Part shown: in pieces, positions 33,554 through 36,770 of the stretch | Layout: the number at the start of each line of letters is the position of its first letter | Numbering within the stretch: the stretch's first letter is position 1 | Assembly (NCBI GenBank): GCA_029219885.1 | Contig: JAQXUH010000048.1 | Coordinates: forward strand, 1-37,697 | Length of the DNA: 37,697 bases | Reading direction: 5' to 3' | DNA from: Eubacteriales bacterium | Lineage (GTDB): Bacteria; Bacillota; Clostridia; Oscillospirales; Acutalibacteraceae | The notes under the pieces: model-generated | The model's input: the letters and a program-made list of their open reading frames with translations, nothing else | What the model was told of the DNA's origin: nothing | The model's database searches: none | Made by a program: the position numbers and the translations under genes

Positions 33554-34645
33554 TCAGTAGTTTTTATCACTTTTAAATAATTCGGTTAATTTTTTGTAAT
33601 CATTATTACTTAACGAAAAGCAAGAGGTGTTTCCTTTTTCACAAATTTGGAAATTAAAGAATTTTTTATATACTGATATTCTTAATATACTTTCATCAAT
33701 CCCAAAGTTTTTATCGTCAGAAAATATGATTCTTAATTCATACTCTCCGTTATCAGACATTAACTCTGGTTTTTCACTTAATCCTTTTTCATAATCACTT
33801 AAACATTCGTTGACTGTTTTATCATCGCACCTGTTATGGTCTTTACTTATAATATCCATAATTGATTTAATTACAGTTTTATCTTTTATTGTAGCAATTT
33901 TAACAGGTCTTTCGTCTGTATATACAATTTTTTCAGATGAATCAATTGTGTTTTCAAATAATTCATTTTGCCAAATTTCAATCGATTCAATTTCGATATT
34001 GCCATTTGAAGTATATAATTCTATTAAGTCATTTGAAGTGTAATCTGTAGTTATCCCATTTAGATAAAAAAGATAATATTTGTTTTTTGCAACGACTATA
34101 ATTACATTATCATTTTGAGATTTTGAAAATTTATACGCTTTAGCCTTGTAAAATGTGTTGCTTTCTGCTTCTGCAATATCCATTGAAGAAAAATCAGTTA
34201 AATCATTAGTGATATTTGATATCTTAATATCACATATTAACTCACCTATATCAGATTTCTTTATTTCAATAGCCTTATTTTCTTCGCCTTTAATTTGCGT
34301 TTCTTTATTGAAAATATATTGAGTATATATCTTTTTGTCAATTATAATCTTAGTTTGTGATTTGTCATTATCAGTTTCAATTTTTATTGCCTTATTATCA
34401 GATATAGTGGTCTGTGTATTCTGCATATTGGGCGTTGACTCTAAATTGCTTATATTTGTACGCTTATCAAATATGGCAAAAGAGCTGATGAGGATAATAA
34501 AACATGCAGCAAAAGATAAAAATGCTGACTTTTTCCTTTTTTGAATTTGATTGTGCTTTGATATTCCTGCCTTAACATTAAGCATAGTTTTTTCGTACAA
34601 TTCATCAGAAAGCTCAATATTATCATTAAAATCTTTATAATTCAT
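33554..34645 (-). CDS. Putative membrane-anchored anti-sigma factor
   Basis: This 363-residue protein is encoded 4 bases after the ECF sigma gene, which is the main reason for the call. It has a short cytoplasmic N-terminus (1-39, MNYKDFNDNIELSDELYEKT), one membrane helix (40-59) and a large external domain (60-363) rich in Asn, Asp, Lys and Ile. No zinc anti-sigma motif (H-x3-C-x2-C) is seen. The external domain is not recognised. AAGGAG lies 7 bases before the ATG at 34645; the longer frame starts with TTG inside that site. The gene is much AT-richer than the window average. It would bind the sigma factor at the membrane until a signal releases it. Confidence 0.7.
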   Translation of the reverse strand: MNYKDFNDNIELSDELYEKTMLNVKAGISKHNQIQKRKKSAFLSFAACFIILISSFAIFDKRTNISNLESTPNMQNTQTTISDNKAIKIETDNDKSQTKIIIDKKIYTQYIFNKETQIKGEENKAIEIKKSDIGELICDIKISNITNDLTDFSSMDIAEAESNTFYKAKAYKFSKSQNDNVIIVVAKNKYYLFYLNGITTDYTSNDLIELYTSNGNIEIESIEIWQNELFENTIDSSEKIVYTDERPVKIATIKDKTVIKSIMDIISKDHNRCDDKTVNECLSDYEKGLSEKPELMSDNGEYELRIIFSDDKNFGIDESILRISVYKKFFNFQICEKGNTSCFSLSNNDYKKLTELFKSDKNY

Positions 34646-34649
34646 AATA

Positions 34650-35144
34650 TTACTCCTTTTCAAGATATTTTTTCATATTATCCTTAGCTCGCAGTAAATG
34701 AGATTTTACAGTGTTTTCGTTACTGTTCATTATTTTTGCAATTTCTTTTATCGGAATTTGTTCGTAGTAAAAAAGGTATATTGCTACCCTTTGATTTTCA
34801 GTCAATTCGTACATCGTTTTTAATAAATCGATATGTGAATCACTTTCATTTTCAAAAGAATAATCACCTATTTTAATCGTTTCATTTAATTGTAAGTTAT
34901 GCCGTGATTTGCTTCTTAGTGCGTTTTTGCATAAATTTGCAGTCACTCGCAGCAGCCATGCTTTTTCATGATTGCCGTCTTTAAAATGTTTATTGTGAGT
35001 GAAATATTTAAAAAAGACTTCCTGAAGAATATCCTCTGCGTCTTCTTTATTAAGTAAGTAATTGTAAGCGGTTTTGAAAATAATGCTTGCATATTTATTA
35101 TATAATTCATCAAAGTGCTGCTTGTTAAAAATTATGTCCGCCAT
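34650..35144 (-). CDS. ECF-type RNA polymerase sigma factor
   Basis: This 164-residue group IV sigma factor has region 2 (about 11-77) with DAEDILQEVFFKYF, and region 4 (about 110-160) with TENQRVAIYLFYYEQIPIKE, IAKIMNSNENTVKSHL and LRAKD. The start at 35144 (MADIIF) has AGAGGTG 8 bases upstream. The longer frame to 35174 would begin inside the predicted -10 element and so cannot be in the transcript. The gene is preceded by an element also found in mirror image before the divergent protease gene, pointing to autoregulation. The subgroup and the signal are unknown. Confidence 0.92.
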   Translation of the reverse strand: MADIIFNKQHFDELYNKYASIIFKTAYNYLLNKEDAEDILQEVFFKYFTHNKHFKDGNHEKAWLLRVTANLCKNALRSKSRHNLQLNETIKIGDYSFENESDSHIDLLKTMYELTENQRVAIYLFYYEQIPIKEIAKIMNSNENTVKSHLLRAKDNMKKYLEKE

Positions 35145-35168
35145 ATATTTATCACCTCTTGCTATAGA

Positions 35169-35197
35169 AAACACATTATTTCATTAAAAAGTTGCAG
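35169..35197 (-). promoter_or_regulatory. Predicted ECF promoter of the sigma/anti-sigma operon
   Basis: Read on the minus strand, CTGCAACTTTTT (35197-35186), 8 bases, AATGTGTTT (35177-35169). TGCAAC to GTGTTT spacing is 16 bases, typical of ECF promoters (an AAC-containing -35 and a short -10). The identical pair occurs on the plus strand at 35225-35253. There is no SigA-type -35. Confidence 0.7.
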
Positions 35198-35224
35198 ATT
35201 TTTTCATAATTTATTTTATATCAA

Positions 35225-35253
35225 CTGCAACTTTTTGTAAACTAAATGTGTTT
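35225..35253 (+). promoter_or_regulatory. Predicted ECF promoter of the secreted protease gene
   Basis: CTGCAACTTTTT (35225-35236), 8 bases, AATGTGTTT (35245-35253). All 21 specified bases match the opposite element, while the 8-base spacer differs (GTAAACTA versus AATGAAAT). This is the pattern expected for conserved -35 and -10 recognition by one sigma factor. The two -35 boxes also form a 12-bp inverted repeat with a 27-base centre. Confidence 0.7.
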
Positions 35254-35309
35254 ATTATTTGTAGAGATATTCTACTACAAATAATTATGTGAAGTTCAGA
35301 GGAATTCAA

Positions 35310-36770
35310 ATGAAAAAAACAACAAAAATAATGGCGTTGTTCTTATCAGCTCTAATGCTGGTTTCAGCAATCCCTATGTCCATTTTTGCAGAGGAAAAAT
35401 CAAACAGTGCTTCGGATTTATATGAGAGTCTCTCGATTTCAGGAGATTTGAAAGCAATTGATAATTATTACATAAATGAGCCTTTTGTTGAAATACCAAT
35501 AACACCCGAGATTTTAGATGATATTGATAATAACAAAGTTTTGGAATCAATAGATGTGCTTTCTGATGATTTAAATGCAATTGATAAAGTGAATTATGTT
35601 TATAATTCAAACATTAAGTACGAGTTGGAATATGACGGCGGTGCTATTGTAAGCTGTGATGAAAATATGGAAGTTCTCGCATATTCAAATTTTGATAGAA
35701 ATACTGATATTGGTCAATTAAATCTCTCTTGTCAAACATCAACAATAGACAATTTAGACAACACAGAAGAAATAAACGAATTAAAAAGTAAATATAATAT
35801 TGATGATACTTATAAGTTAGAAATTACTGAAGACAATAATGATATCAAGTACTATTGGAGTAAAATTGGATATAACGGAATCCTAAATCCGTATGATTCG
35901 TTATCGATTCGTTTTGATTGTGCGTCAGGTGTGATTGTAACATTTAACAGATTTGCGGATGTTTTTAAGAATACAGATATAAATATATCAAAGGAGGACG
36001 CTGAAAAGATTGCTTTAAGTAGTAATGAAGATTTTGTTTCGGTATCATCTTGTGAAATGTACTATGAAAAGCCTAATTTCTTTTGGAATGACACGAATAA
36101 AATATACACAACTGACAGTACTGTTAGACTTGTATATAAAGTGATTATTGACGATATTTATGAAGTGTGGGTTGATGCTGAAACAGGGAAAATAATCGGT
36201 GGTGACATAATGAAGGCTGCTAATAATGCTCGAGCATATGCTTACTCCAATTTTTCATATGCAACACAATCGGCTAGTTTGGCTAATACATACTTAAAAA
36301 AACTTGGTTATACATCAAGTTCAGGTGTTATCAACAATAATTTTACAACAAATCCTGTGCTTCCTTTCGTACGAGATGATTTAAATGCATATGGATTTTA
36401 TATTGATTGTCATGGTTCGACAACTACATTGGCAACTGACAACAAAACAATACTTACAACAAGTCAAGTAAAGGGAAATTGGCATTTTGTATTTTTAGAT
36501 GCTTGTTCAACTGCAGCTAACACTAATTGGGCAAATGCGTTTAAAATTAGTAGTAGTTATTCAAAGAGAGCATTTTTGGGTTGGTCCAATACTGTGACAA
36601 CAAAAAATGCTTATAGCTTTTGTAGCTATTTTTGGCCAGAAACGTATAACGGAAATCATTCTAATAATATTAGGGATGCAGCTGTTTGGGCTGCAGACCA
36701 AGTTCCTGGTTCTGGAACAACTCCAATAAAATTTTACGGTGACAAATCCTATAATGGTAAAGCCTATTAA
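35310..36770 (+). CDS. Secreted protein with PepSY-like proregion and caspase-fold (clan CD-like) domain
   Basis: This 486-residue exported protein has a signal peptide (1-27, cleavage at SIFA-EE). The middle (about 165-300) looks like one or two PepSY/propeptide-type modules (ISKEDAEKIALSS, then YEVWVDAETGKIIGGD). The C-terminal domain (302-486) has His368 in FYIDCHGST and Cys399 in FVFLDACSTA. This His-Gly ... hydrophobic strand-Asp-Ala-Cys pattern is that of clan CD (caspase/gingipain/CHAT) cysteine proteases. AFLGWSNTV follows. AGAGGA lies 6 bases before the ATG at 35310. It diverges from the sigma/anti-sigma operon and shares its promoter type. The proregion suggests autoprocessing. Protease activity is inferred. 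Confidence 0.72.
   Translation: MKKTTKIMALFLSALMLVSAIPMSIFAEEKSNSASDLYESLSISGDLKAIDNYYINEPFVEIPITPEILDDIDNNKVLESIDVLSDDLNAIDKVNYVYNSNIKYELEYDGGAIVSCDENMEVLAYSNFDRNTDIGQLNLSCQTSTIDNLDNTEEINELKSKYNIDDTYKLEITEDNNDIKYYWSKIGYNGILNPYDSLSIRFDCASGVIVTFNRFADVFKNTDINISKEDAEKIALSSNEDFVSVSSCEMYYEKPNFFWNDTNKIYTTDSTVRLVYKVIIDDIYEVWVDAETGKIIGGDIMKAANNARAYAYSNFSYATQSASLANTYLKKLGYTSSSGVINNNFTTNPVLPFVRDDLNAYGFYIDCHGSTTTLATDNKTILTTSQVKGNWHFVFLDACSTAANTNWANAFKISSSYSKRAFLGWSNTVTTKNAYSFCSYFWPETYNGNHSNNIRDAAVWAADQVPGSGTTPIKFYGDKSYNGKAY

What the first reader, a model, noticed from the sequence alone, without database searches (positions are those of the whole stretch)
35169..35253. Mirror-image bipartite element is a likely autoregulated ECF promoter pair
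CTGCAACTTTTT-N8-AATGTGTTT occurs once on each strand, facing outward, with all 21 specified bases identical and the 8-base spacers different. Conserved boxes with a free spacer, a 16-base -35/-10 spacing and a position directly before an ECF sigma gene and a divergent gene are the hallmarks of a sigma factor's own target promoters. It gives a specific recognition sequence for this sigma factor that can be searched genome-wide.
Basis: partly seen in the sequence, partly recalled or inferred. Interest (0 to 1): 0.85.

Follow-up and report, generated by a model that had tools for sequence, protein, structure and literature searches.

The report
Two-way promoter of a sigma switch
Two outward-facing copies of one promoter sequence lie between a bacterial sigma-factor gene and a gene for a secreted, protease-like protein, and comparison with related genomes suggests that the sigma factor switches on both itself and its neighbour; this is a common design, here well supported by how protein and DNA changed together.

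Summary
In detail: CTGCAACTTTTT-N8-AATGTGTTT occurs once on each strand (35169-35197 -, 35225-35253 +), and in 0 of 100 shuffles. It lies between an ECF sigma gene followed by a membrane anti-sigma-like gene (both -) and a secreted protein (+). In the genome held (85.8% complete) no third site rises above background.

The promoter reading is supported. In 60 of 95 ECF loci (own genome, genus, order) a TGNNAC-N16-box lies upstream of the sigma gene; no other spacing from 10 to 22 exceeds 11 of 95. The second base of the -10 box follows sigma residue 74 (Asp position of a DXXR-like motif): C with Asp 29 times, T with Asn 21 times, never crossed in the 56 loci kept; 7 of 7 independent switches agree. 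The window sigma has Asn74 and TGT. Mirror pairs recur at four further loci; their arms share boxes, not spacers. Most loci have one arm only, against an operator or hairpin.

Autoregulated ECF promoters and residue-to-base codes are already known. New here are this module, its divergent PepSY/caspase-like target and a clean Asp/Asn-CGT/TGT switch. No transcription data exist.

The parts
35186..35197 (-). Leftward -35 box CTGCAACTTTTT (core TGCAAC 35191-35196)
   Evidence: kept upstream of related sigma genes
35169..35177 (-). Leftward -10 box AATGTGTTT (GTGTTT 35169-35174)
35225..35236 (+). Rightward -35 box CTGCAACTTTTT (core TGCAAC 35226-35231)
35245..35253 (+). Rightward -10 box AATGTGTTT (GTGTTT 35248-35253)
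35161..35161 (-). Predicted transcription start, leftward (inferred by the -35 numbering of the Tt-RpoE1 promoter, PMC3397946)
   Evidence: inference
35261..35261 (+). Predicted transcription start, rightward (same inference)
   Evidence: inference
34650..35144 (-). ECF sigma factor gene (ATG 35144); residue 74 Asn, region-4 helix TVKS at 145-148
   Evidence: Pfam Sigma70_r2 and r4_2; closest solved relative SigW
33554..34645 (-). Anti-sigma-like protein: short inner part, one hydrophobic stretch, long outer part
   Evidence: position and sequence; no family match; weak DUF4179 in 2 of 7 homologues
35310..36770 (+). Divergent target: signal-peptide-like start, weak PepSY/YcdB-like middle, C-terminal domain with CHG (His368) and DACS (Cys399), possibly a caspase-fold peptidase

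Best explanation
The element is a back-to-back pair of promoters for the ECF sigma factor encoded beside it. At rest the sigma is probably held at the membrane by the anti-sigma-like protein (inferred). When released, it directs RNA polymerase to both promoters: leftward to its own gene and the anti-sigma-like gene (autoregulation), rightward to one secreted protein with a protease-like C-terminal domain. Sigma region 4 (TVKS, residues 145-148) would read TGCAAC and region 2 (Asn74) the T of the GTGT -10 box. Shown: presence, conservation, exact spacing, and covariation of residues with box bases. Inferred: actual transcription, start sites, control by the anti-sigma-like protein, and the function of the target.
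For: Two perfect copies, 0 of 100 shuffles. TG[CT][AG]AC-N16-NNGT upstream of 26 of the first 35 sigma loci against 0.24 in 300 shuffles; 60 of 95 loci under the rule, other spacings at most 11. -10 base 2 against residue 74: C-Asp 29, T-Asn 21, C-Ser 2, G-Ser 3, G-Asn 1 in 56 loci; first of all columns, z 9.6; 7 of 7 independent pairs, p 0.016. -35 base 3 against residues 145 (z 5.5) and 148 (z 4.9); base 4 against 148 (z 4.0). Mirror pairs at G055:C16, G015:C36, G015:C52, G006:C14. Arms of one locus agree in the -10 at 0.93; 9 of 945 pairings reach that; spacers agree no more than by chance, 270 of 945. 22 of the 26 loci have no outward arm.
Against: 35 of 95 loci show no box pair under the rule, among them 12 with Asn74 and 12 with Asp74. 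Four of 60 loci were dropped by eye; with them there are 2 T-Asp rows. For the -35 only 2 independent pairs lie on supported branches. G048 has GTCAGT as -10. The target homologue of G048 has no boxes in its 81 upstream bases. In Tt-RpoE1 the Asp of DXXR was assigned to -12G, and changing -13C to T had no effect, whereas here residue 74 follows the base equivalent to -13. In G015:C52 the outward arm faces no gene. No expression data.
Confidence: 0.9

Rival explanations
1. The mirror repeat is an operator for a dimeric regulator that controls both genes; its likeness to promoter boxes is incidental.
For: Imperfect 34-nt inverted repeat, 74% complementary, in a divergent intergenic region.
Against: 22 of 26 loci with the box pair have no outward arm. 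The distance between the two -35 hexamers varies: 29, 20, 18, 18 bases and overlapping (read). Box bases follow sigma residues.
Confidence: 0.03
2. The repeat acts as an RNA hairpin (terminator or leader structure).
For: As RNA the stretch folds better than shuffles: -23.1 against -11.7 kcal/mol, z -4.2, 1 of 200 shuffles as good.
Against: With outward promoters neither transcript contains both arms. No terminator-like site was found there. The 8-base spacers are left unpaired. Single-arm loci are the majority.
Confidence: 0.02
3. The boxes are ECF promoters, but of another sigma factor of the cell (a sigma cascade), not of the adjacent one.
For: Cascades are discussed for ECF factors (PMC3817407, passages). 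A second, distant ECF-like gene exists in this genome (C50, 25% identity), and the genome is incomplete.
Against: Box bases follow the residues of the adjacent sigma across loci, and both arms keep the class of the neighbouring sigma.
Confidence: 0.04
4. The sigma gene is driven mainly by the housekeeping sigma.
For: A sigma-70-like match, 10 of 12, lies on the - strand at 35241-35213.
Against: Such matches are near chance: 4 found, 2.3 expected. It would not explain the conserved boxes. A basal second promoter is compatible with the best explanation.
Confidence: 0.05

Closest known systems
Tt-RpoE1 of Thermoanaerobacter tengcongensis and its own promoter tGTTAC-N16-CGTC (PMC3397946; abstract and passages)
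   Same: ECF sigma that transcribes its own gene; TGNNAC -35; -10 at the same distance; a DXXR Asp in region 2.4 contributes to -10 recognition
   Different: The -10 here is GTGT, with Asn at the DXXR position; two mirrored promoters; a divergent secreted target
Autoregulated ECF sigma groups with promoters found upstream of their own genes (PMC3817407, PMC8103513; passages)
   Same: Bipartite promoter with rigid spacing upstream of the sigma/anti-sigma operon
   Different: Not assigned to a numbered ECF group here; -10 is TGT rather than the hallmark CGT
ECF residue-to-base specificity code (Todor 2020, PNAS; not held; described in PMC8103513 and PMC11588781, passages)
   Same: Sigma2 and sigma4 residues predict -10 and -35 bases
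   Different: Here worked out in one clade with phylogenetic pairs; whether the Asn-T pair is already listed could not be checked
SigV/RsiV of Bacillus subtilis (PMC8844934, passages)
   Same: ECF sigma with a membrane anti-sigma that has a large outer domain
   Different: No DUF4179 match above cut-off here (2 of 7 members weakly, best E 0.019); signal and proteolysis unknown; different target

Membership tests
ECF sigma factor | Sigma regions 2 and 4 only | tested here: met
   PF04542 1.6e-13 and PF08281 1.4e-12 above cut-off in a protein of about 165 residues; TIGR02937 sigma70-ECF above cut-off
ECF sigma factor | AAC in the -35 box (hallmark named in PMC8103513) | tested here: met
   TGCAAC in both arms
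ECF sigma factor | CGT in the -10 box (hallmark named in PMC8103513) | tested here: not met
   TGT in both arms; TGT goes with Asn74 in 21 of 21 T loci of the 56 kept. The later definition in that review rests on sigma2/sigma4 alone, so membership stands
ECF sigma factor | Positive autoregulation | not testable with these tools
   Promoter boxes and covariation only; no transcription data
Membrane anti-sigma factor (downstream gene) | Inner sigma-binding part, membrane span, outer part, next to the sigma gene | tested here: inconclusive
   Layout fits by sequence; no family match at E 0.1, none in the PDB
DUF4179 anti-sigma (RsiV type) | DUF4179 domain | tested here: not met
   Weak in 2 of 7 homologues, best E 0.019; not in the window protein
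Caspase-fold (clan CD) cysteine peptidase (divergent gene) | His-Gly and Asp-x-Cys motifs, the latter after a hydrophobic strand (motif recalled) | tested here: inconclusive
   His368/Cys399 invariant in 4 genus proteins. In 6 wider rows Cys 6 of 6, His 5 of 6; the sixth is a frame that begins there. Pfam C14 only E 0.055 in one homologue; no PDB match (one unrelated at E 0.96)
Caspase-fold (clan CD) cysteine peptidase (divergent gene) | Fold | not testable with these tools
   Structure prediction interrupted, then switched off

The most novel reading that the evidence does not exclude
A closed three-gene surface circuit: the sigma uses a private TGT-type promoter code (Asn74) and has only two targets in its genome, its own operon and a secreted caspase-like protein. 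That protein may feed back on the circuit, for example by cleaving the outer part of the anti-sigma. The locus was duplicated in the genus, and the copies drifted to separate -10 codes (GTGT and TTGT) that keep the paralogous circuits apart.
Probability: 0.2. Interest if true: 0.6.

Novelty: new member of a known kind. Interest (0 to 1): 0.42.

Why it matters
It gives a testable recognition sequence, with the residues that may read it, for a sigma family of an unnamed genus whose nearest named sigma relatives found are Ruminococcus and Oscillospiraceae draft genomes. It suggests that paralogous sigma circuits stay apart through a one-residue, one-base switch, and it points to a secreted protease-like protein as the output.

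Tried and rejected
Operator, hairpin and housekeeping-promoter readings were tested and set low (see rivals).

A first genus-wide pattern had a wrong gap and found nothing in 80 genomes. Corrected: 13 hits in 11 of 80 genomes, 3 control hits in all. Of the 13, 7 lie at sigma loci (G000 two, G015:C36, G098, G056, G055, G028), 1 faces outward beside the sigma of G006, 2 lie upstream of one conserved secreted-protein gene (G015, G004), and 3 (G059, G029, G032) lie in open frames of the opposite strand.

Structure prediction of the target and of the anti-sigma-like protein: both jobs were interrupted, then the tool was off, so no fold search was made. A search for the target in 391 genomes of the class found homologues in 3 others, two of them partial; their promoters were not examined. 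The weak target matches of G011 and G031 were fetched, but only their reading frames were listed.

Paper searches listed no paper whose title or abstract start concerns this locus or ECF promoters of this genus; only open-licence PubMed Central papers were searched.

Full report
Check of the observation. CTGCAACTTTTT-N8-AATGTGTTT is present once on each strand at 35169-35197 (-) and 35225-35253 (+), identical in all 21 specified bases with different spacers, and absent from 100 dinucleotide shuffles with up to 3 mismatches. TGCAAC and GTGTTT are exactly 16 bases apart in both. The GTG that opens the mechanical sigma frame (35174) lies inside the -10 box. Likely starts are ATG 35144 (-) and ATG 35310 (+), each with a Shine-Dalgarno-like sequence.

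Genes. Leftward lie an ECF sigma factor and a protein with one hydrophobic stretch and a long outer part, the expected place and shape of an anti-sigma factor, although no family model recognises it. Rightward lies a protein with a signal-peptide-like start, a weak PepSY/YcdB-like middle and a C-terminal domain with CHG and D[AS]CS motifs. Among six aligned C-terminal domains the Cys is kept in 6 and the His in 5; the sixth is a frame that begins there. One distant homologue (L099, from G292) reads GHG and DACHTG. This suggests a caspase-fold peptidase, on motifs alone: Pfam C14 reaches only E 0.055 in that homologue, below cut-off, and no fold could be predicted.

Own genome. The exact short pattern occurs three times: the two sites here and one in contig C20 that lacks the T-run and AAT; its genes were not examined. 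TGCAACNTTT-N10-ATGTGT with one mismatch gives the two sites and one in an open frame of the opposite strand. The long form with 3 mismatches gives the two sites and two weak ones, while the reversed control gives 6. No further target stands out, but the genome is a draft (1.89 Mb, 105 contigs, 85.8% complete).

Close relatives. Of seven sigma homologues of 45-70% identity, G056 and G015:C52 have TGCAAC-N16-GTGTT upstream. G015:C36 and G098 have TGCAAC-N16-TTGT. G055 has CGCAAC-N16-TTGT. G048 has TGCAAC-N16-GTCAGT. In G057 the contig ends after a matching -10. Mirror pairs occur in G055:C16, G015:C36 and G015:C52, and in a more distant relative, G006:C14, where the two -35 boxes overlap and another secreted protein follows. 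Near-full-length target homologues were found in G055, G015:C36 and G048:C19 among 98 genomes. The first two have the outward promoter. The third has 81 upstream bases on its contig and no boxes in them. In G015:C52 the outward arm faces an inverted repeat of 13-base arms and no frame of 90 or more residues on its strand for about 1.4 kb; it may be a relic.

The promoter class follows the sigma. The target homologues beside TTGT-type sigmas have TTGT boxes; the target here, beside a GTGT-type sigma, has GTGT boxes. Across the five mirror pairs the arms of one locus agree in the -10 hexamer at 0.93 on average, and 9 of all 945 pairings of the ten arms do as well. Spacer cores agree at 0.38, no more than random pairings (270 of 945). 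A copied repeat would have kept the spacers too.

Wider test. In the first 35 ECF loci (30, the window's own included, and 5), 26 have TG[CT][AG]AC-N16-NNGT upstream, against 0.24 on average and 2 at most in 300 shuffles. Sixty more loci down the list bring the total to 95; 60 have a box pair at N16 under the rule, and no other spacing from 10 to 22 exceeds 11. The other 35 show none. A rigid spacer is a known need of ECF factors (PMC6411747, passages).

Covariation. Four of the 60 loci were dropped after inspection: the shortened sigma of G015:C36, one locus with two overlapping hits, and two irregular hits. In the remaining 56, each sufficiently filled column of the sigma alignment was scored against each box base. 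For the second -10 base residue 74 ranks first (z 9.6): C-Asp 29, T-Asn 21, C-Ser 2, G-Ser 3, G-Asn 1. Among the 52 loci with C or T, 7 of 7 independent pairs on supported branches agree (p 0.016), with 10 changes of base and 10 of residue. With all 60 rows there are 22 T-Asn and 2 T-Asp; one of these two has another hit that agrees. For the first -10 base residue 77 ranks first (z 3.6). In the window sigma, residues 74-77 read NALR, that is, NxxR at the place of a DXXR motif (by motif; Tt-RpoE1 was not aligned). In Tt-RpoE1 the Asp of DXXR was assigned to -12G, and -13C to T had no effect (PMC3397946, passages); here residue 74 follows the base equivalent to -13, so the contact may differ. 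For the -35, residues 145 and 148 rank first and second for base 3, and 148 first for base 4: TVKS mostly with TGCAAC, AVKM with TGTGAC, AVKT with TGTAAC. There only 2 independent pairs lie on supported branches, so relatedness is not excluded.

A group outside the rule. Eighteen loci from named Ruminococcus, Oscillospiraceae and Clostridia records (36-43% identity) have no TGNNAC-N16-NNGT, but all carry Asn74, and in 15 of 18 a [GT]TGT[AGT]T lies in up to 105 upstream bases read; CGT[ATC]T occurs in 4 of 18; no shuffle control was run. In five, GTCA lies about one spacer length before it (L078, L079, L081-L083, by eye). A TGT -10 with Asn74 thus seems to recur with another -35.

Mechanism. 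The best reading is a promoter pair for the adjacent sigma: positive autoregulation to the left, one dedicated output to the right. Shown: boxes, spacing, conservation, covariation. Inferred: transcription, start sites (near 35161 and 35261), inhibition by the membrane protein, protease activity of the output. Results against other readings, and for them, are listed under the rivals; note that the stretch does fold well as RNA (z -4.2) and that one sigma-70-like match lies on the - strand at 35241-35213.

Known and new. That most ECF factors autoregulate and that their promoters can be found upstream of their own genes is established (PMC3817407, passages); a later estimate is about 55% (PMC8103513, passages). 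A residue-to-base code has been published (Todor 2020, not held; described in PMC8103513 and PMC11588781, passages). The finding is a new member of a known kind. Within the searches named in Tried and rejected I found no paper on this locus, its mirror arrangement with a caspase-like output, or the Asp/Asn-CGT/TGT switch; the last may be in Todor 2020.

Noticed in passing
L086 (G015:C24:6295-6322 -) and L090 (G004:C25:451-478 +): TGCAAC[CT]TTT-N12-TTGTGT, conserved between two species, lies about 170 bases upstream of a similar secreted-protein gene, with a TTGACTT..TAGTATACT housekeeping-like promoter between (by eye); a possible further target of an ECF sigma.
   Followed up: partly
L051 (G048:C19:1-3000) against L050 (G055:C16): The target proteins of G048 and G055 are nearly identical, but the DNA just upstream of the start codons differs and the G048 contig begins 81 bases before the gene; this suggests transfer or an insertion.
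   Followed up: no
L053:2600-2730 (G015:C52): A mirror promoter pair whose outward arm faces an inverted repeat and no nearby gene; possibly a relic of a lost target gene.
   Followed up: partly
L052:1186-1620 (G015:C36): The sigma frame of this second locus ends early and lacks the region-4 helix, while the target frame beside it is open.
   Followed up: no
L067-L084: Eighteen sigma loci of named records lack TGNNAC-N16-NNGT; all have Asn74, 15 have a TGT-type -10, and five show GTCA at the -35 distance.
   Followed up: partly
window 35254-35285: An 11-base perfect inverted repeat (ATTATTTGTAG / CTACAAATAAT) lies in or at the start of the predicted 5' leader of the + gene.
   Followed up: no
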